Part shown: positions 17,007-57,204 of the stretch, piece after piece
Layout: every line of letters starts with the position of its first letter
Position numbering within the stretch: the stretch's first letter is position 1
Origin: Apostichopus japonicus
Taxonomy: Eukaryota > Echinodermata > Holothuroidea > Aspidochirotida > Stichopodidae
Assembly: GCF_037975245.1 (NCBI RefSeq)
Contig: NC_092568.1
Coordinates: forward strand, 25,850,501 to 25,914,500
DNA length: 64,000 nucleotides
Direction of reading: 5' to 3'
Notes under the pieces: generated by a model
Told to the model about the DNA's origin: nothing
Databases searched by the model: none
The model's input: only the letters and a program-made list of their open reading frames with translations
Program-made: the position numbers and the translations under genes

Positions 17007-17416
17007 GACTCGTCTCTGCAACCTTCTAAACAATGTCTCGAAGCTGCTAAAAGAGGTAATAGGGTTTTAGGTATGATCAAGAGGAACTTCAGTTTTCTGA
17101 AAGAGGACATCGTAGTTAGGCTTTATAAGCAGTCGGTTAGGCCTCATCTGGAATATGCTGTGCAGGCTTGGAACCCATATTTTGCTAAGGATAAGGAAGT
17201 ACTTGAAAAGGTCCAGATGAGGGCTACTATAGGATGATTAGTTCCTTAAAGAGTGTTCCTTATTACAGGCGGTTACAACTGTTGAATCTCACCACACTGG
17301 AGCTAATTCGGAGGTTACATGGGGACTTGATTCAGGTTTTTAAGATTGTGTATGGTTTTGACAATTTACCCTTTACCACATTTGCATGTTTGCTAACAGT
17401 AGTTGTACCAGAGGTC

Positions 17417-19376: not shown

Positions 19377-20019
19377 GGTGTTACTAAAACGAATGACAAT
19401 TGCGTTACACATAACGAATGATAATATGTTGTACACACTAAAAAATTGCGTTGACTAAAACGAATGACAGTAATGACAGCACAGACATTTGCTTCAACCG
19501 GATATCACAGTTCAGACTTCCTGGGTATCTAGATCTAGTAAAGTATGGACAAGATAAAAACACACCTTACAGTAAGCGAAATTGTAAGTTTGATTTTAAA
19601 AAGTAAATTTAACGTCATTTTTCTGATATTAATTGTTAGAAACTAACGATACTATAATCTTGAAACGGCTTCAGTTATCTTTCTTTATAAATCTACAGAG
19701 GTAAAAAGCACAGCACTCAAGCGCATTCCCACACAAAAACTTTCCCTGTGGTTTCTATCCGTAAATAACACGAAAACCCTGCTACTGTACCACGTAACAT
19801 GCGATTTTCTCAAATTTCCTCAAATCATTTTTGCGCAGGAAACCAATAACCGCATTTACTCCACTCCGTTGATCATTCTATCTCCTCTCAACACTGTCAT
19901 TCGTTGTCATTCGTTGTCATTCGCTGTCATTCGCTGTCATTCGCAAATGATAATTAACCCGGCCTGTACAAAGTCAATTGTCATTCGGTCATTCGCTGTC
20001 ATTCGTTTTAGTTTGTCCC
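19377..20019 (+). mobile_element. Mutator-like nonautonomous element, copy 1
   Basis: The ends share ACTAAAACGAATGACA in inverted orientation. The 9-bp direct repeat CAGTATGAG flanks it (19368-19376 and 20020-20028). Five tandem copies of TGTCATTCGY lie at 19895-19944, with further single copies near both ends, as subterminal transposase-binding arrays often look. There is no transposase frame. The same element lies inverted at 53578-54257, also with a 9-bp duplication; 9 bp is the mark of Mutator-type transposition. It sits in the 5' flank of the zinc-finger gene. Confidence 0.75.
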
Positions 20020-20196
20020 CAGTATGAGTAGAGGAATAACTTATATATCCTCCACAAAACATCAATTAAGTGTGTCTAATTATATCTAAGTTTACTTTGG
20101 TTTCTGTACGTAATTAATACTACTTAACTTTGCTCGTTTGTCTTTAGCAGATCGATACAGCAGTATTTTCACAATTAACCAATTACATAAATTGAG

Positions 20197-23100
20197 ATGG
20201 ATCTGGCTGGTGAAGATACTAACAAGACCAAAGATGAAAACCTAGACAGCAGCTCAGCTGATGGTAACTATAGATACTATAAAGAATTCTACAATTTTGC
20301 CATTTCAAACTTGGTGAATCTTGCATGAGCAGAAATGTTGGTGGTGGATCATATTTGTGTCAACTTTAGACTTATTGAATTAACACGTGTTCAGAATATC
20401 AGAAACTGTTTGGTTATTAACTTATTGTGAAGTACAGTAAGATAACATCAAATTTTTGGTTTCGATGATAATTGTAACCTTTGCATTCATGATTGCGTAA
20501 GGGTGCGTGTGTGTGTGTGTGCGTTTGTGATGCCCAGCTTTTAAACACGATATCTCAAGAAGGGAAGGTCAGACCAATTTTTTATATAGTGTGTAGAAGT
20601 ACCACATTAAGTACAAAAAGCCTAATGTTTTGGTGGAAGTCAAATGTCATTTGGGGTCATCAGAGGTTAAATTGTGAAAACCTTGTTAACATGATATCTC
20701 AATATTGGAAGTTTGGGCAGCTCTCACACTTGGCATGAAGGTGTACAACGTTGATTAAAAGAAGCCTATTGATTTTGGTGGAGGTCAAAGGTCATTTGGG
20801 GACAACATGTCAAAGATTGAAAGGCTTGTAAACGTTATATTGCAAGAAGGGAACGTTGGATATATCTCATATTTGGTTTGTAGATGTACCATATCAAAGT
20901 TAAGGAGCCTATTATCGCTTTGGTGGAGGACAAAGATCATTTGAAGTCAACAAACGCCAAACATTTACTTCACTCCCCTCTTACTTGTCTCTATACACTA
21001 ACACACCTTCCTAAACATAATATCGCAAGTGAAATATAGTAAATCTTATTTGACTTATGATTGCAAATGTGTGACTCTCTTTCTTCCATTTCTTCATTTT
21101 TCTGTTGCTATTTTTTAATTACCCCCCCCCACCCCACCCCAAAAAATATGATAAGAATAATAAAATAAGTAAATAAATAGAAGAGACACAAATTCAGTTG
21201 TGGCAAATTGCATGGTTACTGTTTGAAACTGACATTTGTTATTTTTTCTTCATCAGAAGTTTTTATCAAGGTCGAGATTGGTGAGGATGATGACAGTGAA
21301 GTAAATACACAGAAAGAAACAGGTTTGTGGATATTAAGTTGTGGATGGCTACGAATGGGAAGAAAAGGGGAAGTTAATTGCCAGATAAAAAACTATGTAT
21401 TTTACTGAGAATGTCTAAAGAAAATGTGTTTTAAGTTTATGATAATGTATATATAATTTACCTGCTCCATAGCATGTAACTGTTGCTGAGATAAAAATAA
21501 TAGAATAATAGAAGCAAGTTTGAAAGACTCAGTCCATTTAAAGCATCTCAGATTAATTTTCATATCAGTGATTTTGACAAGTTTATGAAAGAATTGACTT
21601 CCCTGATGTTAAAAAAAGGCCTTGTGCTAGCTGTTAGTTTTGGTGCAGATGAAATGTTAGTCTTTCAAATGGCTAATTTTTGTTTTTCAGCAATTCGATA
21701 TTTCTGGTGGTCCAGATGATCTTTAACACACAATATTTGGTTAGATATTGTATAAATGTCACAACTCACAAAATATTTAAAACTTCAGAAAGTCTGGACA
21801 TATTAGTGTAAACCTATGACACTATTTATAGAATATGGACCTAGTCTAGCCTTTGCATGAAAGAAGGACTGAAAACCAATATTGTCATTCACAGTTGAGA
21901 GAAATTACTGAATAAATGTGCCTTTTGTAGAAACTTTGGGTAATCTGGTGCGAGTGAATTATAAATTGAGATAACAGGCAATCAGCTGTTTGTAAAACCT
22001 TGAGTGAATGTTGTGCTTAAGAGTGAATTATGTTCTGATAACAGTCAACCAGCTATTTGTAAAACCTTGAGTGAATCTGGTGCTTAAGAGTGAATTATAA
22101 AATTCAGAGAACAGGCAACAAGCTGCTCTACCAGAAAAGATGCATTTTAAGACTGGAAGAGCTGTTCCCTTCAAGTAAACATAGAACACAGTTATACTTA
22201 AAGCTTGACATGCTCTCAGTAAATGCTTTTTTTAATGTTTTCTAATATTTATCACAGGGGGAGGAATTGATCAAGCCCCGGTACAAGTTTCTTCTGCTAT
22301 TGATCACAGATTGTCCATACATCATCCTGAAAGTGAAAGGATCACAGGGACAGAGAGTGCAATAAAGATGAACCACACGTTACCAAAGTCCTCTTTGAGG
22401 GGCGATGAGAATCTCACACTGGTTCCTGCGGGGTTTGTTGGAGTCGTTAATCATGACGAGGAAGCTGCCGATGTCACTCATACGGCAATGTGTGAAAGTA
22501 CAGATGAATATTGCACCATCTCTTTTCCTGATGAACTCGATCAGTCTGAGAACAGGCATTACAGCTCTTTGAAAGATGAAACAAATTTGAACGCTCAAAT
22601 CCTTGAGACTAATGATGACTCGTGCCAAGGTGACATTCCATTAGAATGTCAATACTGCAGCAAGGTCATGTTAAAGCAGAGTGCATTGCTAGTACATGAA
22701 AGAACCCACACAGGAGAAAAGCCTTACCTTTGCAAGTTTTGTGACAAAGTCTTTGCCTATTCTGGCACTTTGAAGACCCATGAGAGCTTGCATACTGGCC
22801 AAAGACCGCATCAGTGCAAACTCTGTGGTAAAACGTTCAACAGGCCCAGTCTCTTGAAAGCCCACGAAAAACTGCACTCTGGCGAGGAAGCCTACGAATG
22901 CAAGCAATGTCCGAAAGCTTTCAATACCTACAGCCGGTTGAAGACACACCAGACGACACATTTGAGTGAGAAACCTTTTCAGTGCAGCTTCTGCGAGAAG
23001 ACTTTCAACACGGCCCATTGTACCAAGAATCATGAGAGAATCCACACAGGTGAAAAGCCGTATCATTGTCCATATTGCACCAGAACGTTTTCTCGAGTTT

Positions 23101-23744
23101 CAGGTCTGATAGTTCACAGGAGAACTCACACCGGTGAGAAACCTTACAAATGTCAGTTCTGTGACAGTTCTTTCACCACTTCGAATTGTTTGAAAAGGCA
23201 TGAGAGAGTTCACACGGGAGAAAGACCCTATCAGTGCCACTTTTGTCCCAAGGCCTTCTCTCAGTTGTCGACCGTGAGGAAACACGAAAGCATTCACAGC
23301 GACGTGACCCCGTATGGTTGTCAAACCTGCGACAAATCATTCCCCACCATCAGCTGTTTAAAGGCTCACGAAAAGACTCACTGCACCGACAGACCATTCA
23401 AGTGTCAGTACTGTGGGAAGGGGATTATGTCAGCAGCCGGTCTACGAATACACCTCAGAAAGCACACCGGCGAGAAACCTTATGCCTGCAAGTATTGTGG
23501 CAAAGCTTTCTCGGTGACTTGTTCATTGAAACTACATGAGAGAATACACACAGGTGAGAAGCCATACCAATGTGAACAGTGTAACAAGGATTTCAGAACA
23601 GCCAGCTCCTTAAACCGACATAAAATTGTTCACAGTGATATCAAGCGACCTTATAAATGCCAGGATTGTGGGAAGAGATTTAGAAAAGTGGATACGTTAA
23701 AGCTACACCAAAGGCAGCACGCTGCTGAGAATTCCTTCCGCTGA
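20197..23744 (+). CDS. 13-finger C2H2 zinc-finger protein
   Basis: Three exons join in phase 1: 20197-20263, 21257-21322, 22258-23744, giving 539 residues. The first two encode a short acidic N-terminus with a sumoylation-type IKVE motif (around residues 26-29). The last exon encodes a 125-residue linker and then 13 C2H2 fingers in one array (about residues 173-532), most joined by TGEKPY-like linkers. Finger 10 is CQYCGKGIMSAAGLRIHLRKH, lacking the usual aromatic before the helix. No KRAB, SCAN, BTB or ZAD domain is seen, so this is probably a sequence-specific nuclear DNA-binding regulator whose target cannot be read from the sequence. The start ATG at 20197 is the only one that fits the phase of exon 2; a possible acceptor (TTTAGCAG, ending at 20149) suggests an upstream noncoding exon. 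Intron 2 carries a 68-bp tandem repeat. A one-to-one ortholog cannot be named because such arrays evolve fast. Confidence 0.85.
20541..20960 (+). repeat. About 143-bp tandem repeat, three diverged copies
   Basis: The phrase ATATCTCAAGAAGGGAAGGT recurs in diverged form at about 20550, 20692 and 20837, each followed by GTAGATGTACCA-like and TTTGGTGGAGGTCAAA-like blocks. It lies in intron 1 of the zinc-finger gene. Copy 2 holds AGGTCAAAGGTCA at 20782-20794. Confidence 0.65.
21937..22130 (+). repeat. About 68-bp tandem repeat, nearly three copies
   Basis: GAGTGAATTAT recurs at about 21952, 22021 and 22088, with shared blocks ACAGGCAA and TTGTAAAACCTTGAGTGAAT between. The repeat is in intron 2 of the zinc-finger gene. 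Confidence 0.65.
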
Positions 23745-25545: not shown

Positions 25546-28500
25546 ATGCCAGCCCTAGAGCCCTCCCTTGATGATATTGAGGACATCATCAATACTGATG
25601 ATGTTACACCACAAGAAAGGTACAAGAATAAAAACAAAGTCATACCGAAAATACATCGCAGGAAAGAAAGAGTGTCTGGATCAAGGCACAAAGAGGATGT
25701 TGTTGCTGACAGGTATGTTAACTGACTTAGTAAGAACTGTTGTCATTTCATGTCAAAGTTTGTGTACTTTATGCTACTTGGTTATTGAATATCCTTACAT
25801 TCTCTTTTGAAGGTCTTTAAATTGTAGGCTACTTTATAACAAACAAAGTACATCAGAAAGGTAACTGTTGTTCAGTAAGACTTTGCAAATACTTACTTGA
25901 AACCCTCCAAAGCTGTCACTAGATATGGATGTTCCTGCTTTGTGCGACCAGTTTTAGTTGGTATCATCCAATTACTTTTATCATGCTTTATGCAGTAGTT
26001 GCCACATAGTCATATTTTCCAGAGATGAAAGAAAAAGCTGTACACTTTTGGCATGGAAAATATTTTCACAGTTACAGCCTTCATGTTCAGTTTGATAGTG
26101 TTCATAGAATATCCACAATTTGTTACTATTTTCAGTGTGATACCAGGCACTCAGAGTATCTATGTGAAGACCTGGGGCTGTTCTCATAATAACTCTGATG
26201 GTGAATACATGGCAGGACAACTTGCTGCTTTTGGCTACAAAATAACAGGTATGAAGTATTCAATTTTCAGTTGCTTATAAGTTTGTTGTGTGTGTGTTTA
26301 TGTCTTGTGTTGCAACCAATAATTTTATTGTTTGATGTTCAATGTGATAGGCAGTGGCGGACTGGCCACACAGGCATTTGGGCATGGCCTGGTGGGCTGG
26401 GGAGCCTGGTAAAAATTACAGCCCATTTTCACAGTAGTTAATAGAATACAGACAGGCTGTGTAGAAATATATATTTAACTGTGGGAATCAGCTCATGAAA
26501 TCACCATGTTAGTTAGTCTGTTAGTTCGTAACAAAAGAATGTGCTATTGGCAACCGTCCGTGCTAATGAATTTTATTTAGGTTTTTTTTTTTTTTTCAAT
26601 TATGTTTCCACAAAATGCTTGAAAAACCAAATAAAATCCAGTCTTAAAACAATTATTTTTGTCTATTTTTTTACGTTTTTAACTTTTCTCAGTTTAATCA
26701 AGTGTTGCTTCTGGAAAATTATTTTTGGATCTTTTTAAAGGACTATTGTAACCTACAAAATTGAGAAATATAGCACCATTTTGCATCTAGGCATTCTTTA
26801 ACTTCAAAAAAATCTAAATGGGGAGACCCCTCTCCCAGGACAGCGATCACTATGTAAGTAACATATCAATGAATACTAGGCCGGTCTAGGTGAAAAACGC
26901 CCGGGCCGACTTTAAGACCCAGTCCGCCCCTGGTGACAGGAGAAAATGAAGTCTTCAATAAATTTTTTTAGTACACTATGACCAGTATTATTAAGTGATT
27001 GTTTAAAAAAAGTTCTTTCTCATAGAGCAAGTTAATTATGTGTGTTGCTGTTTCTTGTTAATTCACATCATCACTAATCCTCCAAATAACTACAGACACC
27101 TGAGGCACTTGCAATGGCATTCTTCCTTTGATACATGTCCCAAAATATTTCCTAAAGAAGAACTAAAGACATTAATTCAGAAATACTGCACATGGTCACT
27201 TCATTGTACATTTTCAGGTAGACGATCAATTTTCTCAGTGAGGAAAACAAATTTGCTCTGAGGGCAGCAGTAAATAAATAGTTTAATGCAGGTGAACACT
27301 TTTGATCTGCATATTTTGGGGCAAAGTAGAGTCCTTCCCAACTTTTCATGTTAAAACTCGAAATATTAAGTTTGCCATAATTGTTCCAAGAATGGTGATA
27401 TATGAAACTTATAAAGTGTGGTATGCTGGGCTCCATTCAGCACATCTTGTATAGCCCAGAACAGTGAGCAGATGTGTACCCTCCTTTCGAGTGAGAAACG
27501 AAATAAAATATTTCAAATTTTGCTTCAACAGATGACTGGGAGGATGCAGACTTGTGGCTTTTGAACAGTTGCACTGTGAAGAGTCCTGCCGAAGATCATT
27601 TCAGAAATGAAATTAATAAAGCTCAACAGAAGGGGAAACACTTGGTACTCTCTGGGTGTGTCCCTCAGGCCCAACCCAGAGCTGGATATCTTCAGGGTGT
27701 GAGTGCTGTCGGTGTTCAACAGATTGATAGGGTGGTTGAGGTTGTCGAGGAAACACTCAAAGGTAAAAACAGAGCCATGAATTCGATTTTTTTGGTTATC
27801 ATTCCAATTCAGGATCTTAAAATTTTATATTTGTGCTTTCCTGTTTTTTAAGTTTGTAGCATTGCTCATTCATTTGTTTCTTTGAGTTTTTCTTCAGCAT
27901 TGAAACATTCCATTTAAGTAGAAATATGTACAGTATAATATTTTCCCTTATATGACATGCCTGAGAACAACCTTTACTCAGTGAAACTTAAATAAGTATA
28001 TAAACCATTTTGGATTTCTTGAAGGTTTTATGTCTGTCTGGTATCTCTCATTTAGGTCATACGGTTAGATTATTCGGTCAGAAGAAATCAGAAGGAAAGA
28101 AGATTGGAGGTGCCAGATTAGACCTGCCTAAGATCAGAAAGAACCCACTCATTGAAATACTTGCCATCAATACAGGGTAAGTTTTACCTATACAGGCATC
28201 TTGTTTACCAGTAGAAATGTTTCATGATGCATGCAAAATCTCAGTTTAGATGGTTTCATGTTTGGTATTTGTATTCTGTTCAGGTTTTTATCAGAGATAC
28301 CAAGTGTTAATATATTTACAGTTTTACTGACTCTTTTATATAAAAGTCCCCAATGGTAATGAACCCTACCTCAACTTCTAACAATTTTAGACTGAAAATT
28401 GGTGTGCTTAAAAATTTAACTTTTGATCATCATGCTCTCAGTAAGAGAGTTATTCCTTTATTGTATTTTTATTTTCTTCATAAAATGAGTAATATATGAT

Positions 28501-32962: not shown

Positions 32963-35900
32963 TGGTAACGATAATAGTTTTGGAGTCTTGCTAAAACCCG
33001 AGTGGCTGTGATGGGCATGGAAAGTTTTCAATGCCCTGGAAAGTCTAGAATGCTGTTCGGTTCTACGGTCGTACACATCTTGTACGATGACAGGATGCCA
33101 AATGATTTTGGTGAGAAGGTTGGCCCAGGAAATTTGGAAATAATATTTATGATTAGACAGAAGTTCAGTATCCGATGGTGCTGCTTCCATTTCATAATCA
33201 AAGGATTTTCATTGATTTAATTTCAGTGGTGAACCTTCAGAGGTTAAATTTAACACGTTCTTGATATTGTTACCCATGGCTCAGTTGTGTCTGCAACATA
33301 GTAACTGCAAGTCTTCCTGTTTCAAATCAACCCAGTGCCACATGTCAGTGGAACCTCTTGTTTTTTTTGGTAGAAACTCTCACCAATTCAATTTAGTGTG
33401 GAAAGAGGTGATGAAAATCTTAGCACATCATACATCAGACCATCATCAGACCTCATTTTCAAACCTGGTGTGCATAAGTTTGTGTATAGAGTGTATTAAA
33501 GTAATGTATGTACTTTGATGAAGCATATATGAAGGATCATTAAAGAGATGAGATGGCTTTCATTTATCTCCAGTAGTTAACGTAAAGAGACATACTCGGT
33601 TGACATTGTCAAACAAGAATAAATTTTTTGGTGAAATGATAAGAGTGTAAAAAAATTAGGAGAAATCAGGCATAACTGAAAGGTTATTGGCTATTTTTGC
33701 CATGCTGTATGAAGATGTACACACACATTCTGACAGGTAATTTCTGTTTTATATCGATATTTGGTGAGATTCCAAATTGTGTGGTACTGCTCAAAGTAAG
33801 ATATATGGATTTGACTCACTAATGGTAATTGAAAACAATAGAAATGTTGATTTTATGCCAATTTTCAGAGACTTTTTCAATCTAGAAGTAATGTTGGACA
33901 ATATGTGACAAACAGTTTGACTGTACACAATAATACTGTGAGCCAGGTTATTGATTAATTTCTTGTGCAAACAACAGCAGTTGTTTTCAGAGCACAACTT
34001 CTCTGCAATATGACACCTGTATATAAGTGTATCCCTGCTGTTTATAAGTCAAAGCTAATTGAGTATGGATTATGAGTGTAATATTTGTAACGAAAAAATA
34101 AATGTAAACCATGGAAGTGAACAAGGAATTGTGGTAAAGTAGTTGTGGTTTCCAAGATCAAGTAATATCTTCCTTTTTTTTTTAATTACCATGGTTTTTT
34201 CAAATCAATTTTACAAGGAATAATTTGATACATTTCTAAATAATTATTAATTGGACTCAAATTAAACACCGTTAGCAAGAATCAGTCATCTATGTTAGCT
34301 CCAAATGTAAGCACGTTAAAGTTTAGCAAAAAACTGACTTTGCATAGTGTGTGATACATATGTAGCTATATTGATAGACACTTTAGTTGCCTTGTTTGAA
34401 AGTAAATTGTAACTATTTCCCAAACACAAGTTTAATCTACACAGCCTCCATGAAAACAGTTTAAAATTTATGGGGGAAAGAATCGTATTCTGAGGTATTT
34501 TCATGAAATATTTCACTCATTTACTGGAATTATACAATAAACTTTATGTTAGATAATTTTCATTTTTGGTGGAATATCTTATACAGCTATCGGTGAAGGC
34601 ATCCAACATTTGTGCTATTATTATTATCAAAAAGCTACCATTTCATCCTACTAAAATAAAACTAAATTATTTGGCTTTAGACCTTAAGATTAATGAATTG
34701 GCATTTTTATATTTACTTGTTCTCATTCTCACTGGGAGAGGGCTGATCTCTATGGTCAGGCTTGTATAAATTTTCATAGCTTCACTCATTTGGCTCAATG
34801 TTAGAGATCTACGTTTCACAATAAAAAGGAAAAATGGACCCATGTGTTTGCTTTATTCCTGAAGTTTATCTTGGCTCTGTAGGCCATGGTATGTTTTGCA
34901 TAGACAAAACATCATTTCTATTCAGGGTCATTGTTATGGGAAGCAGCTATTCAATAACAATGGATTTCTACCTTTCTCAATTAGTCAGGACAATTTCTTG
35001 TATTTTTTAAGGAATGTCCTAAGTTGACCAACAAGTACTACTTATCATTGTGCGCGTTCCTATACAACGCGAAAATTTTGTGGGCGGGCACAAAACCACT
35101 AGTGACCAATCATAATAGATACCATGTGCGCATGTGAACGTGAACGCAGAATTCACGAAGAAAGAAATAAGTAAATCAACGTATCCTTTGTGTGGTGCCT
35201 GGAACTTGCACAAGTACTAAAAGTAGACTAGACTTAGTAAGAAATGCACCCAGTGAATAGTGTGTTTGGTTTATTACTTGATACAGAAAAAATAGGATTG
35301 CTTTAACGGGTTGGTGATGCCGGGAAATTTGAACTACTTGCGTCTGTAAGATTGTACCTTGGTCATCTGTCGTAAATGTAAGTTATTTTCCATGGGGCCA
35401 GTTGATTGCAGGTTTAACACTTTAAATCTTGCCCAACATAAGCCTCAACGTTAGGCTGTTATTTATTGGTCTGCAGTAGGCTTGAGCCTTAACTTAGGCC
35501 ATCTTGAAATCACAAGGCTTTTTCCTTTGCATAAGTCAATGAAAGACAGGGAGTTGGCTATCCTTACGTTATGCACATGTAATAAAGAAGTAGTCATAGC
35601 CTAACAGGGCAGGTCTAATGTTTGTCTAGGCCTAGTTTTTATTTTAATTGTGCATACACAAGTACAACTTTTTGTGTGGCTAGGAATTAAAGTAACTTGT
35701 ACATGGGTCTACCACTAAACTTGGCGAGGACTAAAATTAGATTTAACCTAGACTAGTTTTTTTTTTTTGCAAAGAATTTACTTGCATTAAGCACTCCTTT
35801 GCAAAGTATAACTTGCACATGGAGCATAGGTTTATGCTTTCACATGGCAATAGAGTGTGTTTGCCTTCTAATCTTGTCTATATTATTCAACAACTGGATG

Positions 35901-36185
35901 CCATGAACATTTCCCAACAAAGATCTAGACATGTTTGGAAGAATTCACAGGTTATTTTGGTACTGCATAATAACTGTTAACATTTCATTTCCCATATCTT
36001 CACAAACTAAGGTACACTTCGGCATAGCTGATATAACATGTAGCCACCATGTTTTTAAAGTTCTTTTGATCATACCTTATTGGGGACAATATTAATGTCA
36101 ATTCATTTTCATATCAGACTTAACTCTCCCATTTTACCCATTTATTAGTTTAAGTATTGTATGTTTGTATTTTTTTTTCCAACAG
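32963..36185. other. CDKAL1 3' UTR and spacer before the bHLH-HMG gene
   Basis: The first 1.1 kb is probably CDKAL1 3' UTR, ending near the AATAAA at 34097-34102. The remainder is AT-rich. A 5' noncoding exon of the next gene may lie near 35200-35380, because the start-codon exon has its own acceptor (TTTCCAACAG, ending at 36185). No other gene is seen. Confidence 0.45.
34097..34102 (+). promoter_or_regulatory. Possible CDKAL1 polyadenylation signal
   Basis: AATAAA about 1.1 kb after the CDKAL1 stop, on the sense strand. Confidence 0.4.
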
Positions 36186-36224
36186 AATCTTTCAAGCAAA
36201 GACAATTAACATCAGGAATTTAAG

Positions 36225-39200
36225 ATGTCAGACCAATGTGTTCCAAGTTCTGAAGCACCAGAAAAAGAGAGCACTGGGCTAAAGAGATGTACAAGTTTAA
36301 GGAAGAGGGGGAAACACTATCATGGAAACAGTGAAAGTGGCAGCAGGAATTTAAATCAAATTAATACCAGAAAAAGAAGATATTACGGGGAACCTGCAAG
36401 GACTGGTTATGGGACAATCCTAGATGTCAAAGTGGCACATAGAAAAGCTAAAAGGAGATCAATAGTCAAAGATAAAAAGAGGGAAATTCACAGACAAAAT
36501 GAAAGGTATGCAAATTCATAATAGATATGCAATCATCAAATATTTCGCATGAAGTTTTTCACGATTTTCTGGATAGCAAAATTGCTGCTTTGTGAGATCT
36601 TGCTCACTTTAAATTCTTGCCTAAGTTGTTAACATTGTAACATTGCATCACAATGGTACAACCCATGTATGCAACAACCATTTTCATGAAGCTCTTAAAG
36701 GTACAATTCCCAACAGAAAATTTAATATAAAGTTTTGTGGTTTCTTTCTCAAGTCACATGTAGTACTTAATTCTGTCTTCCCATCTTGGTGGGGGTTTTA
36801 GTCATGTAGACTAACGTAATAGATTATTGTTCGGAGTATGCTTAAAATCTTTGAAATGTTGAATGCCTGTTGGTACTGACAGTGGAGAATTCAATAATTC
36901 ATCTTCAAATATGTTGGGTAAATATAAGTGGAGGATATTTCTATATAAATACTTATACTTTGCAAGGAAAGAATTACAAGAGTGTAACATATTAAAAGTG
37001 AGTGTTAAACAATCAAAACAATAGAAAGATTTATAACGCCACCTTGAAATGTTTTCTTTGTGTAGACACCGTCACCATAGTGTCAACTTGGCTATACAAG
37101 AGCTCTCTCAACTAGTACCTTGTCTTGAACCAAGACGAAATAATACCAAGGTAAGAGTCGTTTTGCAAACATTTTACCTTCTGACAGTAATCATCTTAAT
37201 TAGATGAACTAGCAATTTAATCAACAAAAAGATTACTGTGTAGTATGCTGTAAGCCTGGTTGAGCATATGCACAGACCAATTGAGTGGTCTAGAGCCCAG
37301 GTAATCAAAGTTGGGGCCATCAAACATGTTGGGTCACCAAACATTGGAAGATAAGGAAATTTTGATATTTTTTGGGGGGAAAGTGTAAAAATGTTGACAT
37401 AAATTATGTTAATAAGTTGCAAACTTTACACCATTTGCAACCAAGTGCACTGACTCATATCAAAATGTCTCAAACACCTGTTCCTCCCATACCACAATAT
37501 GATGGTCACCAAGATGTTGAAGTTGCAAATTGGGGTCACCAAGCAAAAAAGTTTGAAATACCAGGAGTCTAGAGCAATCTTCAGATAATATATAGTGGTG
37601 GCATGTAAAGATTTCTTCCTAACAACACCATGAGTAATGAGAACTCAGCAAAATAAGATCCTGGGAAGGTCCACTTCTTCACAGAACAGAGAGTTCCAAA
37701 TGTGGTTGAGCCCAACTGAGAGAATAATGTATTGCAATTATGAGATTGTGTGATACACCTTCATACAAGCATATCAAAGCAGCTCTGCTTGAATAGGAAT
37801 TTTATTTGATAACTATTCAAATAGTATCATGAAATTAAAATAGGATGAAACAAACAGGCATTAGTTCCCACCAAATCAGTGTAATCTTGTCAGAAATTAG
37901 TACAAAATGGACAAAATCCAAAGCAGCTAGTAGACACAGAGTGATGTCTTCAAGGCGGTTGCGGGGATAATATAAAACATTTTCTCAAATCAGATAACAT
38001 CTCTACCAATATTCTCCTGCGCAAAGGGTCTTGATAAGTTCTCCTTATAGAGGAAGTTCTATGATACAGTACTGTATATATTTAAGAAGGTTCCTTCCAG
38101 ATAAGTTTTGCCATCATTGCTTTAAGTTTTATATTCTTTGTTACATTTTCCAGCAAAACATCGTTCAAAGGACGGGGGAGTATATGGAATACCTGAATAA
38201 CAAAGTGACTGCTATGTGCGATCAGCTTCGTTGTACTAAGAGTCTGTGTCATGACTCGCTAGCAATGAGTCAGATTCTCTCAGCAGTGGTTGGTAAGTCA
38301 CCCTCAGTACAGAGTTGTTTGTGTCTGTTGCTTTATTTTATGTTTTATTTAGACAGATTGGAAGTGCAAGGTGGGGAGGTCTGGGTTGCTTGGCTCCTTT
38401 TTCAGGATAGCTTTGGAAGTTTCAGAAATGAAAGGTTTTTCTCACAACACCGACCGACAACCCTTTACTCTCAGCCTAACTTGGGGATAGCAGCTACTAT
38501 TTTCAAGCTATAGTTAATCAATTGTAACAGAATTGTGAAAACTCGGTAGGCTTCTCCGTGTATCGAGATATGGGCTTATTTGTATGTATAGATGAAAACG
38601 TTAATTCACAGTTTTGACGAGAAGGAATCCTACTTAGCATTGGTACAATCCATGCACAAAAGCTTTTGGTGTGCCAATCATCAGTTATGATTCTGATAGA
38701 AAGTAGACAATATGATTTCATGCAATAGTAATAGCATCCAACCGGGAAGCTTAAGTGTTAAGTTTTAACATATATACATCGTTTATGTATTTATCTGTAC
38801 AAGAAAGAATTCTTCAACCAAGCTTGTACCATTTTGTTAGGTGTACTTTCCCAATAAAATGTTGACATAAATGTACAAGACATAAACAGACACAGCTAAA
38901 CTAGATTATCTATTCTTCCATTTTGTTACTTGACAGATGGTCAAGAAGAAAAATTTCCTGCTGATAATCCAATACATTTAAGTAATTTGGAAACTCTTTT
39001 GGATAATATGCACATTGAGAACAGAACATACAAAATAAGAAACCAGGCCGAACAAGACGATTGCTTAAACTCTGAGGAAGAGGGCCTTGGTGATCAGAAA
39101 GAGGTGAAAAAGTCATTTAGAGTCCAAAGTAAAGGAAGCAGGAAGAAAAGTGATTCCGACTTCCCAAGAGGACAACCTTTTGTTGCGTCTCCTTCCTTTC

Positions 39201-41307
39201 ATGAGAGCCGATCTTTCACCTCCCCTTCAGTCAGTGGAAGTACTTCCCTCCGTAGCCAAGAGGTGGTTACTCCTGGTTACCTTGGCGATGGGGAAGAGTC
39301 AGCCAGTCCTGTCGGAACAGCATCTTGCACGAAGTCGCTGTCCTTATCCAACTCGTCCGACGACATCTCGGACGATGGTTCAATGGATGACGCTGCGATC
39401 AGTTCCGCAGCAACAATCGTAGTCCCAAGGGGTAATTTGATGAGCCCTCAGAAATACCCTTCGAGCACAAAGCTTGAAACCTCAAAGAAACTTTTATTGC
39501 TAACGGACAAATCAGTCAGTAAAGAGATTCAACAACAAAGGGTTCATTATTTGGTTGATGCAGAGCAGTTTGCCTCCATCAGGAAATGTCAGGTTGCAGA
39601 TGGTGGGTCGTCCTCTGCAGCAGACAATGTGACTACGACAGCAGGCTTCCCACAACTCTTTCTTATACCCACAACAATCACAAAACTATTGCAGATTGTT
39701 CCTGCCCAAAGCAGTGCTCAGAATATCAAAGTCACAACAGAATCTCCGGAGAAAGGAACGAGACTCGTCGAGAGGAGTCCTCGTGGTAAAGAAAATCGAC
39801 CAGAATCAACGACAGATCAGGATGGAAAGCATGAGGATGGGATGGATCAAACTAGTATGTCATCAAGTCCAGTTAAAGCCAGCTGTGATGGTCAGCCACT
39901 GAATATGAAGGTCTGGACAGATGCACCTGGTGATGATCAACACATTGAAACTGATGGCTACAATTTATTTTCCAAAATCAACTACCCTCATTTTCATCAG
40001 TAAGTGCCTTTCAATACTATAATCGTAATTAGTTATGGACACAATCTCATCCCCACAGATGATGTGATTGGATGTTTTATCAGTCTCTACTCAAATAGTG
40101 AATGCACAAGCTACCAATAGCATTCATTTGCATGGCCAATGAAAGTCTTCAAAAGTAAGGTATTTTTTCCTGGATATTCTGATTGGGCATGTTATTACCA
40201 GCCATCAGTATAGAAAATTATATTGCTCAGTCATCACAGCTTGAATTTGTTTAAGCATTGCAGTAAAAAGAATGTTCATTGAAGTTTCAGCATATTGGTG
40301 ACCATTTATTCAAATTTCTCACAAAATAGTGATGATCTTTTACTCTGACTTTGGGCTTTTTGTTACCAGTAACTAGTGTAGATTTCCATGCTGTAGCAAT
40401 GAAAATATAGGCAGTCTAAGTCTCTGAGTCAAAAGGGGGCTGGATTTAAGAATATGTGGAAACCTAACTGTCCAATTGCAAATTGCAGTTGTCAGGTACA
40501 GAAGTCCCAGAGGTTAACTTATCAGTAAGATGAAGAAAGACTATTAAGAACATAAACATTTCTAACCAATGTTTCAACTACTGAGGGATGGACACTATAT
40601 TGTGGGTTATTGGGTGTGGATGAGATGTCCTTACATCATGTAACACTAACACATGATCAAATAGCTGTATGTTTTCTATTCAAAATTTACAGAGCTTGGC
40701 CTCACCTTGATGGATCTGATGTGACAAATCTAGTGAGTCAAGCTTGGAAAGACTTACCAGAAGAAATAAGAAATGTTTACAGGTTAGTTTAAGGCATCAT
40801 GATTTAACTCTGATGTACTTCTTAATTATCCTTCACTCATGACTGTTGCATGATTTTATCTCTCTGCTGAAAATTAATTTACCAGCTGCATGATACTAGA
40901 ATGTTCTTCTTTATTAATTAAGTTAGGGAACGTAAAATTGCTTTTAGAACAACAAGCCCCAGATATTTGTAGACTCACTTCAAAAGTATTTAATTTACAT
41001 ATCCCCACTGGTAGTTGAGCTGATCTAGTTTAAATGTGCAGGTATTTTAGTGTATAAATACCAACAGCATTAAATCCATAAAGAATGCTGGAAAATTCAT
41101 GGAACTTGCAGATTGTGTACTTAGCTTGGTTGTTTGCAAGTATTACAAAATCAGATAAATTGATGTACCATTTCTTAAATCGCTTTAATGTTATCTTATA
41201 TTTAAGAATTTTATGGCTGATATTGTTTTTTTCTTTGTAGTGAGAAAGCCAGTGATTGGCTTCCAGATGAGCAGCAGAAACAGGCCAAACATACTTCAAA
41301 ACAATGA
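36225..41307 (+). CDS. MEIOSIN: bHLH plus HMG-box protein, MEIOSIN/BHMG1-like
   Basis: Six coding exons: 36225-36505, 37066-37150, 38154-38292, 38937-39999, 40693-40782, 41241-41307; phases agree, 574 residues. The bHLH spans exons 1-3: basic part KKREIHRQNERHRHHS (about 85-98, keeping the His/Glu/Arg pattern for E-box contact), helix 1 VNLAIQELSQLVP, a loop with PRRNNTK, and helix 2 IVQRTGEYMEYLNNKV. Exon 4 encodes about 350 residues of Ser-rich, charged, apparently disordered sequence. An HMG box is split over the ends of exons 4-6: DGYNLFSKINYPHF (from residue 508), then VSQAWKDLPEEIRNVY and SEKASDWL. A bHLH with a C-terminal HMG box is the arrangement of vertebrate MEIOSIN, the STRA8 partner that activates meiotic genes. 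The N-terminus is rich in Lys/Arg. The architecture is clear; orthology is inference. Another bHLH class that gained an HMG box is the alternative. Confidence 0.8.
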
Positions 41308-44300
41308 AATAACAAGCCCATGGTGAAATATGTCCTTCAAAGTCATCCAGATAGCAACAATTATGTAGTATTGTGATATTTGTCACTATTATTGATAATG
41401 TCATTGCAAGTTGATCGATCAGCTTAATGTTTTAAGATGGGACCACTTCCTGCTGTATTATTAGTAGGCCTACTCACAGCTAGTGCAGTCCATGCTACAT
41501 ATTTCCAGGCCTGACAAGAAGGGGGATCAGGGTGGCTACACCCCTGGCCCTCGCAGCAGTTAGGAGGCCTGGGAAAATATGGAGGGGTCCCTGGAATAAA
41601 CGGGAAAAAGAATAGTGTATTCTCATTTTCATAATATACGTAAGGACAAAATAAAAGGTCTGTCCATGCAATTGTTCCAGAGCTTGTCGTGGCTCTTGGG
41701 CTTGTCTCTTCAATGAAATAGACAACTAAGGTTAGTTTATTGGTTCCATGATGAAGGGTTTTTCGTAATTTCTTTTCACTGTGTCCTGCTGACAGTGGGG
41801 TGTAGCCACACAGTATGGCTGCTAACATAAGGCTGTTATGTCTGCTTGCGTGAATGACAATTCTCCCATATGTTTATTAAGGTGCTAACAGAAAATATTT
41901 GACCCTGCTTGTATTCTGAAATCTTCAATTTCCTGAGATATTAATGTAAATGCCGTTGATTTATGTATAAGAGGAAAAAAGATAGTAAGGAGCAGACTTG
42001 AATATTGGACTGGACTAGAGATTGTGGAACATAAGTTAGTTAATTTCTTTCCAGGTTAGGTTTCTTGACACTCTCTGTTTCAAACCACCTCTAAAAAGAT
42101 GAAAGCGTTCATATGTTTCAAAGATGGAGTTTGTGACTCCAATATGCAGAGGGCACAAGGTCAGAATGGGCCTTTGGGCAAAAAGTCACCCAGTGAGAAG
42201 GCATATATGAATTTAGAGTAAATAGTTGGCATGCCTACAGTAAAACGTGACACAATTATTTGTGAGATTAGAAACAATAACCCCTCATGATAGATTTTCA
42301 GTTGTATATATATTGTCATTATATATTGTCTGATATTAACTTGCCAAAAAGGTAAATTGTTGGATGATTCCAAATACATACTTCCATACTGCTAATGTTG
42401 GCACTCTGTCTGGGATATACTCAACTGAATGTATTAGAAGCTGATGTTGTTCAAAGTTTCCATTTACAGTGTTTGCTACATTAACTGCATTTGTCCCAAG
42501 TTTTGAAGTCATGAATTGATCATGAAGTTTGATAATCTTGAAAGATTGCATCATGCAGTAACCACATGGCATGCTAATGTGTTTAAACAGGCAACGTTTG
42601 AAGGTATGAAGTGCCCTCCATTCAGTGAAAGAATCACTTCACCTTCAGATTACTTTCAGCATAGGAAAAGAAGTAGAGGTGAAAAAAAATTCTAAAAAAG
42701 GTATTGCACAATATTGAATAATAGACAACTGACATCCAATTGAATAATCATCATATGAGGCAAAGTAAATTCATTATGTTTCATATTTTATTTGTACAAA
42801 TTTGCAGATATTCATATTGCAGAATTATAGATGATGATCATATATTGTAAATAGTGTTCTTAGGTTTGAGACATGGCATGACATGTCGAGAACATTACTT
42901 AACATTAAATGTTTGTGTGCAGTATAAATTGTCTAGGTGAAAAATCATATCTCAATTAATATGACAATGACATCAATTGATTATTTTATCCTAGAAAATT
43001 CTTTTTCAAGTTATGAAAAAAGAAGTGAACAGTATACTAGTTTGGCTTTTGTCAGAATCACAACAAAAACTAACTGGTTGGCAATCATTCCTATTTTTAA
43101 ATTTCCACACAGCATAATAAATACTGAAGATTATTTGAATATCTCCATCGTCAGAAATTTTGCAATATTTCTGTTATTTCATATTTTCAATTGTTTCATT
43201 GAGTTTAATCCGTCATTGGGGATTTAATTTGTCACATTTGTAAAATAATTCTTGGACATTGTGATGAAATAAAAATGGGACAAACAGAAATTCTTGTACA
43301 TCTTCTTTCTGAAAGTAGTAATTACCTTCACAGGCAACTTGCTTTATGATTTTACTTTGTAATTCATGATACTTAGTTAATTATAAAGTTATATACCAGT
43401 TAGTTATACACATCTGTACTTTGCGCAAGAGCAAATAAACTTCATCGACTTCAGATGAATGCATAGCAGATTTGCACTTCTTTCTACTCTGTAAGATTTT
43501 AGTAACTTCTACACAGGGCTAGTACTGACAGTACAAGCATACCATAGACATGTCTACTCTGAGCGGAGTTAACTAACTTCACCGACTGCATTTCTTTCTA
43601 CTCGGTAAGATTTTAATAACTTCTACTGCTAGTACTGCAAATATAAGCATTACATGTCTCCCTATTAGAAAGATTTTAGCAACTTCATCCACCGAAGGTG
43701 AAAGCATAGTAGAAATGTACAGCCAGCCCTCTACTGATTCAAGTAGTTTCTACACACACCTCAATACTGCAGATGCAAGTGCATAACATGCATCCCTCTT
43801 TCACTATTGATACTGATTCTAACTGCCAATTCAGGGTTATCAGACTTAACACTGTTGCCCAATGCCTCATTGTTAAATGTCTTATACGGTTACTGTACCA
43901 TAGCAGGATTTCTTCATTTTAAGTTACCTGTTATAATATTTATATCATTTACTAATGTCAGCAAACTGCCAACTAAATTATTTTGCCTGGTATCACTACT
44001 TCCTTCAAGTGTAATAAGTAATCGTGTAAAGCTTGAGTGCAGTGAAAAGATTTTTTTCTGAATAGTATCGATACTACTTGTCTTGCATGCAGGTATATTA
44101 CACTCCTGGACCTTGGCAGTTACAGCATGGATTGCTATAAACAGTTATTTCCATTGAATGGCTGCATGGATAGATTACATACAAATACAAAATTAAACAA
44201 CACATGTTTCCCATATTGAGTAGCTTTCTATACTTGATTTGCAACACACAATGCAGTCAATTACACATTGCCCATGATAACAATATATCATGACATTCCA

Positions 44301-53305: not shown

Positions 53306-53577
53306 AAAATAATGTTGCCAGACACTAAAACTCCTTTACGGCCAATATTCCTACAAATCGGCCAAATGTTCCGCGACGAAGCTAACTGAATCTATGCGGT
53401 TGTCCTAAAGGACGATTTGTAGGGTTGTCCTAAAGGACGAGAAGACGGGTTGTATATATATATTTTTTTTGTATAGAAGGTCAAATTTGTGGGGAAAACT
53501 ATTTTGAAGGGTATCAACATGAAAATAGTACACGATTTGAGACGAAGAGGTAATATATATATATGACATAGAAACAC
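53306..53577. other. B3GALNT2 5' flank and probable promoter region
   Basis: The sequence GTTGTCCTAAAGGACGA occurs twice, at 53399-53415 and 53424-53440. An 11-bp inverted repeat, CCTACAAATCG at 53350 and CGATTTGTAGG at 53413, brackets the first copy. No TATA box was recognised in the expected orientation. The stretch 53445-53576 is AT-rich with TATATA runs. Confidence 0.4.
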
Positions 53578-54257
53578 AGGACAAACTAAAACGAATGACA
53601 GCGAATGACCGAATGACAATTGACTTTGTACAGGGTTAATTATCATTCGCCAATGACAGCGAATGACACCGAATGACAACGAATGACAACGAAGAACGGT
53701 GGTGAGAAGAGATAGAATGATTAACGGAGTGGAGTAAAAACTCGGATTTTTTCGATTTTAACCCCGATTTTCCGATTTTTGGCCCATCCCTTCCCTACGC
53801 CACTGTTACAGAGTAGCTACATAACTGGCGCAAATTTTCTCCTTTTCCAGTCCCTTTTGCCCCCCCCCCCACCCTTAAAATTGTTTGTTTTTTTCATAAA
53901 AATGTCCAATATAAGGACTTTTCCTGAAATTTGTAGCCGAGATTATAGTATTGTTAGTTTCTAACAATTAATATCGGAAAAATGACGTTAAATTTACTTT
54001 TTAAAATCAGACTTACAATTTCGCTTACTATAAGGTGCGTTTGTATCTTGTCCGTACTTTACTAGATCTGTAAGCCACGCACTTCGCGTCCACTCGGTTT
54101 GCGTGGCTTTAATATACCCACGAAGTCTGAACTGTGATATCCGGTTGAAGCAACTGTCTGTGCTGTCATTCGTTTTAGTCAACGCATTTTTTTAGTGTAT
54201 ACAACATATTGTCATTCGTTATGTGTAACGCAATTGTCATTCGTTTTAGTAACACCC
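53578..54257 (-). mobile_element. Mutator-like nonautonomous element, copy 2 (inverted)
   Basis: It is the same family as 19377-20019 in opposite orientation. It starts AGGACAAACTAAAACGAATG and ends CGTTTTAGTAACACCC. A perfect 9-bp duplication TAGAAACAC flanks it (53569-53577 and 54258-54266). Sequences such as AATGACGTTAAATTTAC and CAGACTTACAATTTCGCTTA match copy 1 in reverse. The middle (about 53735-53940) does not match copy 1 and includes a hAT-like half end, CCTACGCCACTG near 53793. Confidence 0.75.
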
Positions 54258-54266: not shown

Positions 54267-56061
54267 TGTTAATAAATTGGCAATTTGCCTTTCTTAGCTC
54301 AGTTTCACAAGTTTGTGATATTTTTCATACTTATGCTTCTGTATACTCTCACCCCTACCCCACCCACACCCACCCCACCCCACCCTCTTCCCTTTCAACC
54401 AAGTAAAGTTTTATAAAAATGACACCAATAACAAATTTACAATACTGATAAATGGGTTATAAACGCACAAAGCGCACAAACCTATAAAACAACCTTTGGT
54501 AATCAATCAAACTACACATTATTCACAGAAATTTATGAGTGTCATGTCATGCAATTATTATGACATTTATGACAATCAACGGACGCAGAGAACCAAAATG
54601 CTGCGTGTAAAATAATTTGGAAATTTGAGCAGTGTCTCAAATTGACTTGTCTGAAATGTGATAAATTTGGTAAAAATATCAGCTAAGCTATAAGATATAA
54701 ATGATTATTACACTGCTTTATTTAAAACACTGTTTAGTAGCCCAATTCGCCGGATCAAAATAATGTTCTCTAGGGCTTACTTTAATTTAGTTAAGATTAT
54801 CTATAAAGTGCAATCAATAATTAGTTTTATACGCCTTAGGGCTTTGTTAAAATACCGACCAAACACGGCAAAAATTAGCTGGTTTAGTAAATAGAAGCAG
54901 AACCATTTAGGGGGATTTGTTCTTAATATGGCACGGTTGTTCTTTGTGTACTGAAACGACATTGGTACAAGTATCCCGCCAGACCTGGCGACAGGGTGAT
55001 CAGAGGGCTTTAGATTGAGAAAGCCAACACAATTTAAACTTTTATTATTTTTGCTTTTATTCAGCAAACTCCGTGTCCATGTGAATACATGGTCACGTGA
55101 TGCAGTCCATAACGTGTTTATCAGTAAGGAATCAAGAAGGACATTAACGTTCTAACTATCGAGGTATTTGACTGGTTGATTCTGTAGGTAATTACGAACT
55201 GTAAATAAACTCGGAAGCTGTAAATTCTCCGATTAGGATCTTCATCAAATACCAAAGCTCTAGGATAGATTTATGTGGTCAATAACAGGCAAGGCGTTTT
55301 GTATGAACAACCACTGGGAACGGTACGTAAACCTGACAATTAAACAAACCAAGATAGGCAGAAATTGACCATGCACGACGTATGCATGGCAACTAAGGTA
55401 ATGGGTGTGATGCTAAAACAAAGGATTATAACCGTTGTTAGGTATCATTGACAACAAAACGTATTTCATTTTCTTCTTAGTATATAGTGTAACTGTTTAT
55501 AAAGAAATTCGTGTTTTGAAGTCTCGGTGGTGTAGGGTACCAGCTTCTCGAAGAGCTTGTGCTTTACCAGTGTTAAATGTTTCTTTTGAGCGTAACTACT
55601 ATATATATTTGCATATATGGCTGACACAACTTCAGATGATTGGAACGGTCGTAATACAGAATGACTCAGTAACTTGTTGGAAGTGCGATATTGACAATTT
55701 TGTGAAGGACGTGGACATTGATATTCCTATCATTTGTGCCACGAAGACTCCACACTGCCACGATACCACTTTTCTCTATTCCTTCATGTCGTGAGCTACA
55801 GCTATTCAGGATATTTGGAAGAATACTACGGGCAAGGCTATCAATTTAACCATGATGATGATTCATGGGTAGTGTTATGTGTACAGTATATACACATTAG
55901 CCAGCTATATCTGAAACGAAAGGAAATCACGCAGATAAGACTCCTTCTGCAGTGTTCAGTCAGTGCGGTGAAGATACTATAGAGTATCTTAAAAGTCTCT
56001 GGGGGTGCTTTCTTTTCGCTAAGAGATTTTTTATCACAATCGGAGTGTTGCTACGGTCACG
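54267..56061. other. Intergenic DNA upstream of the unrecognised gene
   Basis: It begins with a C-rich, CCCCACCC-type stretch near 54350-54385. The rest is ordinary-looking. A 119-codon open frame at 55435-55794 shows no domain, and I do not call it a gene. The last 100 bases should contain the promoter or 5' UTR of the gene that begins at 56062. Confidence 0.45.
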
Positions 56062-57204
56062 ATGAGCTTTACCACATCTCCCAAACGTCCCACGTTACTC
56101 GAGGACGCGAGCATCCTTTATTTACCGCGACCAGCGAAATCTGTGGTGCGAAATATTTCGGAACATTCACAATGGGTTCTCTACAACAACGAGAGCGAGC
56201 GACGAAGACTCATTAAACGCTGGGCTCAGATGGATAAGGACCACGCACGACAGATGAGGTTACTAGAAGCAGACTTTCAAGAAGTCAAGCACGACCTGAG
56301 AAATATGGAGTTGGAGAAAAAGGTGCTACATGGGGAGAGATATTCTAGCAGGGAGAGCACGAGAACCGTCTCTAGCGGACCGAGTCAGGGAGCAAGAAGG
56401 GGTTCACAACGGAGCCGACGGTATGGAAGAAAACAGAATAAAGCGAACAGCAAAAATGTTACAAATCCTAAGTTAAAAGATGAAACCGTGAGAAAAGAGT
56501 TTCACAGAGCTGATAGTGATCTGCCAATTATTCATCCTAAGTCACTTGGAGTTTCAAGTGGAAAGACAGCTAAGCAGGCCGATCAAATAGCGAAGTTGAA
56601 ATCGAACAGTCATGAGGAAGCTCAGGATGAGTTGACATCTCCGACGCCCGCCCCCTCGGATGTCAGTGGTAAATTATCCATTACTGAGACTATTTACTAT
56701 TTGAGTTTCCAGGCACGTCAGAGGTATATGAACAATCTTAGTGTCGGCAACCGAAATCAAGATGAACAACCTGTTTTACCAGACAAGGTTAAGCAACAAC
56801 CCGGACAAGCTTTACCCACAATGGAGCAATTGTCGAACAAACCCTTTCCTGATCACAAAAAGGGTCTTTGGGGTGCACTAAGACAGAGTGTCATGATGGA
56901 TGGCTCAAGTAAGACGACGAAAAATAACACTCCAAGTTGGGAAAGGAAAGATTCTAAATTAACGAAGACGTTTACACCATGTGGTGAATGTAAGAAATGT
57001 GTGGAGACAATGCGAACTAGGAGGAAAAACGTAATGCAACAACTCTATGGACAGGGGAGACACAGTGCAGAGAGGATGGAAAAGAGACGGCTGGTCTCCG
57101 GGTCAACGGCTGGATGGACGGCCATCAGAAGCGTCGTCATTATCAACCATGCATTAAAGAAATCTCGGGAGAAAGAGAGAGAATCTGCCATTCCTGTTTC
57201 ATAG
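56062..57204 (+). CDS. Unrecognised intronless protein, 380 aa
   Basis: I do not recognise this protein. The open frame runs 380 codons, very long for AT-rich noncoding DNA, and codon positions look constrained rather than repetitive. The ATG has a fair context (CACGATGAG). Residues about 36-90 (QWVLYNNESERRRLIKRWAQ, then DKDHARQMRLLEADFQEVKH) look like an amphipathic, charged coiled coil. A Ser/Arg-rich basic stretch follows (about 92-130), then a disordered middle. The C-terminus has a small Cys motif PCGECKKC (around residues 312-319) followed by a basic helix, and ends KKSREKERESAIPVS. No signal peptide or membrane segment is seen. Two overlapping AATAAA hexamers at 57318-57328, about 115 bases after the stop, support a complete gene. 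It could be a lineage-specific gene, a retrogene, or one exon of a longer gene. Confidence 0.6.
   Translation: MSFTTSPKRPTLLEDASILYLPRPAKSVVRNISEHSQWVLYNNESERRRLIKRWAQMDKDHARQMRLLEADFQEVKHDLRNMELEKKVLHGERYSSRESTRTVSSGPSQGARRGSQRSRRYGRKQNKANSKNVTNPKLKDETVRKEFHRADSDLPIIHPKSLGVSSGKTAKQADQIAKLKSNSHEEAQDELTSPTPAPSDVSGKLSITETIYYLSFQARQRYMNNLSVGNRNQDEQPVLPDKVKQQPGQALPTMEQLSNKPFPDHKKGLWGALRQSVMMDGSSKTTKNNTPSWERKDSKLTKTFTPCGECKKCVETMRTRRKNVMQQLYGQGRHSAERMEKRRLVSGSTAGWTAIRSVVIINHALKKSREKERESAIPVS

What the first reader, a model, noticed from the sequence alone, without database searches (positions are those of the whole stretch)
36225..41307. MEIOSIN-like bHLH plus HMG-box gene in an apparent invertebrate
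A complete six-exon gene joins a bHLH (exons 1-3) to a C-terminal HMG box split over three exons, with a long disordered middle. This pairing is known to me only from MEIOSIN/BHMG1, the STRA8 partner that starts the meiotic programme in mammals. If the host is an invertebrate, the regulator predates vertebrates. The basic region keeps the H-x-x-x-E-R-x-R pattern, suggesting that it can still bind E-box DNA.
Basis: partly seen in the sequence, partly recalled or inferred. Interest (0 to 1): 0.78.

Follow-up and report, generated by a model that had tools for sequence, protein, structure and literature searches.

The report
MEIOSIN-like gene in an echinoderm
An echinoderm genome carries a gene that joins a bHLH domain to a C-terminal HMG box, the layout of the mammalian meiosis starter MEIOSIN, which suggests that this regulator may be older than vertebrates, although true kinship could not be proven with the data at hand.

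Summary
A six-exon gene at 36225-41307 (+) gives one 574-aa open frame with five GT-AG introns. Pfam finds a bHLH (residues 85-136, E 3.4e-8) and an HMG box (509-557, E 1.3e-7), both above cut-off. No second copy was seen in its genome. The host is an echinoderm by mitochondrial code and gene order. bHLH plus HMG is not unique to MEIOSIN: STRA8 is described with both (PMC6392498). STRA8 fails the tests made here: no sequence similarity, different bHLH exon structure, no LXCXE. A bHLH tree pairs the gene with human MEIOSIN at 91/86 (not starred), but the MEIOSIN letters were recalled and are unverified: a lead, no proof; the HMG comparisons are mixed. The basic region keeps H5, E9, R10 and R12, not R13. 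The HMG box has net charge -3. Best reading: an echinoderm MEIOSIN relative that binds DNA mainly through its bHLH and helps to switch on meiosis genes (0.58).

The parts
36225..36505 (+). exon 1 (coding): basic N-terminus and the first part of the bHLH basic region
   Evidence: splice model; Pfam HLH begins at residue 85; in-frame TAA at 36207 upstream of the ATG
37066..37150 (+). exon 2: rest of the basic region, helix 1 and loop of the bHLH
38154..38292 (+). exon 3: helix 2 of the bHLH and a C-terminal extension
38937..39999 (+). exon 4: long middle, 22% Ser+Thr over residues 170-500 (probably disordered, inferred from composition), and the start of the HMG box
   Evidence: 353-aa open frame reached by 0 of 1000 resamples
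40693..40782 (+). exon 5: central part of the HMG box
41241..41307 (+). exon 6: end of the HMG box, C-terminus and TGA stop
41595..41655 (+). two AATAAA hexamers that could be the polyadenylation signal
   Evidence: consensus match only

Best explanation
The gene is an echinoderm member of the MEIOSIN (BHMG1) family: an apparently single-copy, probably germ-line transcription factor. Inferred mechanism: the HLH helices dimerise with another HLH protein (a STRA8-like or other bHLH partner), the basic region (H5, E9, R10, R12 kept) contacts E-box-like DNA, the long Ser/Thr-rich middle recruits activators, and the C-terminal HMG box serves more as an interaction or weak DNA-bending module than as a strong DNA binder, since it is net negative and lacks the basic N-terminal strand. 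Together this would raise transcription of meiotic genes at meiotic entry. Shown: gene model, both domains, no second copy seen, echinoderm host. Inferred: family membership, partner, target and timing.
For: Both domains above Pfam cut-offs in one spliced frame. N-terminal bHLH and HMG box at the extreme C-terminus, the MEIOSIN layout (order recalled; that Meiosin has both domains: PMC9604137 passage). Apparently one copy: at E <= 10 the bHLH query gives 6 matches in 671.6 Mb, of which the two below E 0.4 are this gene's own exons, and the HMG query gives 3, all its own exons. The bHLH tree pairs it with recalled human MEIOSIN at 91/86; recalled MEIOSIN bHLH scores the window first of 36; recalled MEIOSIN HMG has the highest Z of 22 rows against the window HMG. 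Zebrafish has a meiosin expressed in late germ-cell progenitors before meiosis (PMC12289312 passages), so the gene is not mammal-only.
Against: All MEIOSIN letters were recalled, after I had seen the window, and cannot be checked; the recalled bHLH aligns with a 5-residue gap inside helix 1, which suggests a recall error. By Z the window bHLH is closer to a genome bHLH, L005 (14.1), than to recalled MEIOSIN (12.6), and recalled FIGLA (12.5) is as close. By path in the tree USF (2.47) and MAX (2.68) are nearer than MEIOSIN (2.92), and 91/86 is below the starred level. Without the recalled MEIOSIN and STRA8 rows the window bHLH is a long branch inside a starred 10-row set that also holds MAX, USF, SOHLH2 and TCFL5. 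The reciprocal HMG test fails: the recalled MEIOSIN HMG prefers four SOX-type boxes of this genome, window rank 5 of 21, and the HMG tree does not pair the two. Net charge also differs: +14 in the recalled MEIOSIN HMG segment, -3 here, -4 in recalled STRA8. The recalled MEIOSIN bHLH found nothing in a genome-wide search, not even this gene.
Confidence: 0.58

Rival explanations
1. Independent fusion: an echinoderm or invertebrate bHLH gene of another family gained an HMG box by exon shuffling, so the layout is convergent with MEIOSIN.
For: The HMG box is very divergent (net charge -3; highest identity 22% among the 17 other rows of its tree) and the bHLH cannot be placed firmly; trees joining it with FIGLA, SOHLH2, TCFL5, MAX or USF are not rejected, p-AU 0.12-0.23.
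Against: No close relative of either domain was seen in the genome that could have served as the donor; same order and C-terminal position as in MEIOSIN (recalled); the best bHLH pairing is with recalled MEIOSIN.
Confidence: 0.17
2. STRA8 or a pre-duplication ancestor: the gene is the echinoderm co-orthologue of both STRA8 and MEIOSIN, which share the bHLH+HMG pair, and may work as a homodimer.
For: STRA8 also has a putative bHLH and a likely HMG box (PMC6392498); no second gene of this kind was seen, though the searches were weak; a tree joining window and recalled STRA8 bHLH is not rejected, p-AU 0.273; the HMG net charges are alike, -3 here and -4 in recalled STRA8.
Against: No similarity to recalled mouse STRA8 beyond shuffles: bHLH Z -0.4, HMG Z 1.9. 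Human STRA8 has residues 21-86, the bHLH region, in one exon (PMC9941050); here the bHLH is split over three. No LXCXE, and the HMG box is terminal, not internal. STRA8 rows are very long branches, so these tests are weak for a distant ancestor.
Confidence: 0.13
3. Two neighbouring genes or a wrong join: exons 1-3 are a bHLH gene and exons 4-6 a separate HMG gene.
For: No transcript data. One AATAAA hexamer lies in intron 3 at 38853 (sequence). The exon 4 frame has its own internal Met.
Against: Consensus-like donor and acceptor at intron 3 with matching phase, intron only 644 bases; the exon 4 frame does not begin with a start codon; hexamers of this kind are common in DNA of this AT content (inference).
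Confidence: 0.07

Closest known systems
MEIOSIN / BHMG1 (vertebrates)
   Same: bHLH plus HMG box in one protein (PMC9604137 passage); HMG at the C-terminus (recalled); bHLH pairs in a tree with recalled letters, not starred.
   Different: The HMG box here is net negative (-3), whereas the recalled human segment is +14; the basic region here keeps E9-R10-x-R12. Expression, partner and DNA target unknown.
STRA8
   Same: Putative bHLH and likely HMG box in one protein (PMC6392498); HMG net charge similar to the recalled one.
   Different: bHLH region inside one exon in human STRA8 but split over three here; no LXCXE here and no Glu-rich tract like that of mouse STRA8 (sequence; the tract is not well conserved between species); no sequence similarity beyond chance to recalled mouse STRA8.
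Class-B type bHLH factors (MAX, USF)
   Same: Nearest named rows by path in both trees; H5 and E9 shared.
   Different: R13 replaced by His; HMG box added; no clade of window with MAX or USF in the trees.
SOHLH1/2, TCFL5, FIGLA (other germ-line bHLH factors)
   Same: bHLH domain, germ-line roles (recalled); recalled FIGLA scores Z 12.5 against the window bHLH.
   Different: No HMG box (recalled); the best tree does not join any of the three rows used (SOHLH2, TCFL5, FIGLA) with the window, though joining is not rejected.

Membership tests
MEIOSIN / BHMG1 | N-terminal bHLH domain | tested here: met
   Pfam HLH residues 85-136, E 3.4e-8, 33.6 bits over cut-off 20.7
MEIOSIN / BHMG1 | C-terminal HMG box in the same protein | tested here: met
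   Pfam HMG_box residues 509-557 of 574, E 1.3e-7, 32.4 bits over cut-off 25.4; join by splice model, no transcript
MEIOSIN / BHMG1 | bHLH groups with vertebrate MEIOSIN in a tree | tested here: inconclusive
   91/86, not starred, with recalled unverified letters
MEIOSIN / BHMG1 | HMG box groups with vertebrate MEIOSIN | tested here: inconclusive
   Highest Z one way, rank 5 of 21 the other way, no pairing in the tree; recalled letters
MEIOSIN / BHMG1 | Germ-cell expression at meiotic entry | not testable with these tools
   no expression data
MEIOSIN / BHMG1 | Binds STRA8 | not testable with these tools
   no STRA8 found, and the search proves no absence
STRA8 | bHLH region within one exon (human residues 21-86) | tested here: not met
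   PMC9941050 passage against the exon model
STRA8 | C-terminal LXCXE motif, conserved in vertebrate STRA8 (PMC10600341 passage) | tested here: not met
   no L.C.E in 574 aa
STRA8 | Sequence similarity in bHLH and HMG region | tested here: not met
   Z -0.4 and 1.9 against recalled mouse STRA8, whose letters agree with published landmarks; a shared clade is not rejected
SOHLH / TCFL5 / FIGLA | bHLH groups with that family | tested here: inconclusive
   not joined in the best tree, but p-AU 0.137-0.233, not rejected; SOHLH2 and TCFL5 share a starred 10-row set with the window; recalled letters

The most novel reading that the evidence does not exclude
MEIOSIN arose before the split of echinoderms and chordates, and its early form still bound E-boxes through an intact basic region while the HMG box was an accessory module. 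The vertebrate line later shifted DNA recognition away from the E-box (mouse STRA8 and Meiosin share the motif CNCCTCAG; PMC9604137), so that the transcriptional starter of meiosis is a deuterostome, perhaps animal-wide, invention that could be tested directly in sea urchins or sea cucumbers.
Probability: 0.35. Interest if true: 0.75.

Novelty: new member of a known kind. Interest (0 to 1): 0.5.

Why it matters
How animal germ cells decide to enter meiosis is understood in most detail in mammals, where STRA8 and MEIOSIN switch on the programme; signals of meiotic entry look divergent between lineages. A MEIOSIN relative in an echinoderm would date the switch to before vertebrates and give accessible animals with large gonads in which to test whether it works without STRA8 or without retinoic acid.

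Tried and rejected
Profile libraries: NCBIfam gave two chance-level matches (E 0.038 and 0.12); PDB by sequence gave bHLH proteins at E 0.22 or worse with the whole protein and TFAM at E 0.0074 as best with the HMG segment; no row of either list is named MEIOSIN or BHMG1. Collections: genome contigs had 75 pattern matches and viral contigs 9, none a relative by tblastn, so no outside homologue was obtained. STRA8: recalled mouse STRA8 gave 0 matches in the own genome at E <= 10; the call itself says an empty answer shows nothing. The same holds for the recalled MEIOSIN bHLH, which missed even the window gene. In the Pfam lists of the genome (42 HLH; 35 HMG) the nearest HLH and HMG matches on one contig are 375,822 bases apart, but the window gene itself is missing from both lists because introns split its domains, so this is no test of uniqueness. 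The motif CNCCTCAG was sought at 33001-37000 on both strands and not found; this says little about a distant animal.

Papers: ten searches. Searches asked for stra8 without meiosin; accepted any two of six terms, and the 30 of 2,998 and 5 of 7,186 papers listed held no meiosin. Of 111 papers that hold meiosin, bhmg1 or gm4969, 40 were listed. In these listings and in the passages read I saw no report of MEIOSIN in an invertebrate; 71 of the 111 were not seen. The original MEIOSIN paper is not held. In the Mesocentrotus nudus (sea urchin) paper the passages with Stra8 concern vertebrates and a reference title.

Rows dropped before counts: of 42 HLH matches, 35 were fetched plus one weak match (L035, dropped: stops in frame); all 35 were scored, and 30 went into the trees (L033, L034, L036, L037, L038 left out as partial or weak). 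Of 35 HMG matches, 20 were fetched and scored, and 15 went into the tree (L044, L055-L058 left out as partial); net charge was counted on 9 of the 20. Gene-family labels of genome rows (NHLH-like, MYC-like, SOX-type and so on) are by eye and recall.
Full report
What is there. The ATG at 36225 follows an in-frame TAA at 36207 in an exon that seems to begin after an acceptor-like AG ending at 36185, and AATAAA occurs at 41595 and 41650. Exon 4 is open for 353 aa; none of 1000 Markov-1 resamples reach this, the longest being 269. Coding GC is 0.432 against 0.345 in the introns. Pfam-A finds HLH at 85-136 (E 3.4e-8) and HMG_box at 509-557 (E 1.3e-7), both above the curated cut-offs.

The host. The window lies on C8 (25850501-25914500) of a 671.6-Mb assembly of 35 contigs. 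Contig C35 (16,099 bases) is mitochondrial. In its COX1 the motifs GNW and RMNNMSFW come out only when AAA is read as Asn and AGA as Ser, as in table 9; with table 5 they read GKW and RMKKMSFW, and with table 2 there are 6 stops. Pfam confirms the order COX1, ND4L, COX2, ATP6, COX3, ND3, ND4, ND5, ND6 (minus strand), CYTB, with ND1 on the plus strand further on. ND4L between COX1 and COX2 with this code is the echinoderm arrangement, and ND1 on the COX1 strand the sea urchin/sea cucumber rather than the sea star one; these two labels are recalled. So the host is an echinoderm and an invertebrate.

Copy number and surroundings. At E <= 10 the bHLH segment gives 6 matches in the whole genome; the two strongest are the gene's own exons and the next has E 0.405 at 36% identity. 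The HMG segment gives 3 matches, all own exons. Masked or unscored stretches could hide a copy. Neighbours are a stretch with three PHD matches and a bromodomain (1070-12339), a C2H2 zinc-finger gene (22236-23744) and a gene with a UPF0004 match at 27507-27848 (CDKAL1-like by eye). They give no hint of function.

What it is not. Kojima et al. 2019 describe mouse STRA8 with a putative bHLH at 28-79, a Glu-rich stretch at 143-193 and a likely HMG box at about 216-268 of 393 aa (PMC6392498, passages). So STRA8 had to be tested. My recalled mouse STRA8 has 393 aa, the Glu-rich stretch at 143-193 and an LXCXE at 384, in agreement with these landmarks and with the C-terminal LXCXE of PMC10600341 (passage). 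Against it the window bHLH scores Z -0.4 and the HMG Z 1.9. Human STRA8 exon 2 encodes residues 21-86, the bHLH region (PMC9941050, passage), whereas here the bHLH lies on three exons. No LXCXE exists in the 574 aa. It is therefore not a recognisable STRA8, although a tree holding the two together is not rejected (p-AU 0.273) and the HMG net charge is similar (-3 here, -4 in recalled STRA8).

What it may be. I obtained no real MEIOSIN sequence from a tool. I used recalled human MEIOSIN segments, which cannot be verified and were recalled after I had read the window; all results with them are leads only. Among 43 bHLH rows the window bHLH has its highest raw score with recalled MEIOSIN (92; Z 12.6), while by Z one genome bHLH, L005, is higher (14.1) and recalled FIGLA about equal (12.5). 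In the reverse direction the window is first of 36. The tree of 39 rows and 58 columns joins window and MEIOSIN at 91/86, not starred, with 23 of 36 inner branches open; by path USF and MAX are nearer than MEIOSIN. Among 22 HMG rows recalled MEIOSIN has the highest Z (10.4), but its raw score is one point under L045 (61 against 62); in reverse four SOX-like boxes come before the window, rank 5 of 21, and the HMG tree does not join the two, though both fall in a starred set of 7 rows. A genome-wide search with the recalled MEIOSIN bHLH found nothing, not even the window gene, whose bHLH is split by introns. Without recalled MEIOSIN and STRA8 the window bHLH is a long branch (2.05) whose nearest rows are USF and MAX, in a starred set of 10 rows that also holds recalled SOHLH2 and TCFL5. 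So the bHLH is not firmly in another single family, and MEIOSIN is the best available guess.

How it may work. The basic region reads E-I-H-R-Q-N-E-R-H-R-H: H5, E9, R10 and R12 are kept, residues that in bHLH factors contact the E-box (established knowledge), but R13, typical of class B, is His. DNA binding to an E-box-like site is therefore likely, its exact core uncertain. The HMG part has net charge -3, against -1 to +7 in the nine other boxes of this genome that were counted, and lacks the basic strand at its start; it is thus more likely a protein contact or weak DNA bender than a strong binder (inference). The middle is 22% Ser+Thr over residues 170-500 and probably disordered. Mouse STRA8 and Meiosin share the motif CNCCTCAG, which is not an E-box (PMC9604137, passages), so if this gene is a MEIOSIN that binds E-boxes, DNA recognition has changed in one of the lineages. 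Partner, targets and expression are inferred, not shown.

Novelty. In the held library, the listings and passages showed no report of MEIOSIN in an invertebrate, but 71 of the 111 papers that hold meiosin, bhmg1 or gm4969 were not listed; zebrafish meiosin is known (PMC12289312, passages). Automated database annotation of echinoderm genomes could not be checked, so such genes may already be named there.

Verdict. Observation confirmed; interpretation partly supported; a new, non-vertebrate candidate member of a known kind, with membership still to be proven by a tree with verified sequences.

Noticed in passing
G000:C29:2761-31219: Contig C29 carries several broken or repeated COX1 and ND1 stretches on the minus strand, besides the mitochondrial contig C35: a nuclear mitochondrial insert or an unplaced concatemer of mitochondrial reads.
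   Followed up: no
window 1070-12339 (+): Exons with three PHD matches and a bromodomain, with a Glu-rich stretch coded by a 33-base tandem repeat at 2212-2366; by eye one BAZ1A-like gene.
   Followed up: partly
window 56023-57204 (+): A 393-aa open frame with no Pfam match at E <= 0.01; it looks like a coding exon of unknown family.
   Followed up: partly
window 62806-63555: A tandem array of a 21-base unit, 35.7 copies, open in several frames on both strands.
   Followed up: no
window 16905-17237 (+) and the pair 19647-20027 (+) / 53392-53757 (-): Stretches that look like a reverse-transcriptase fragment and like two copies of an interspersed repeat, by eye from the open-frame list.
   Followed up: no
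G000:C8:26064020-26064169 (-): Another bHLH exon (L031) about 150 kb beyond the window on the same contig; it is a long branch in the tree and scores only Z 3.4 against the window bHLH.
   Followed up: partly
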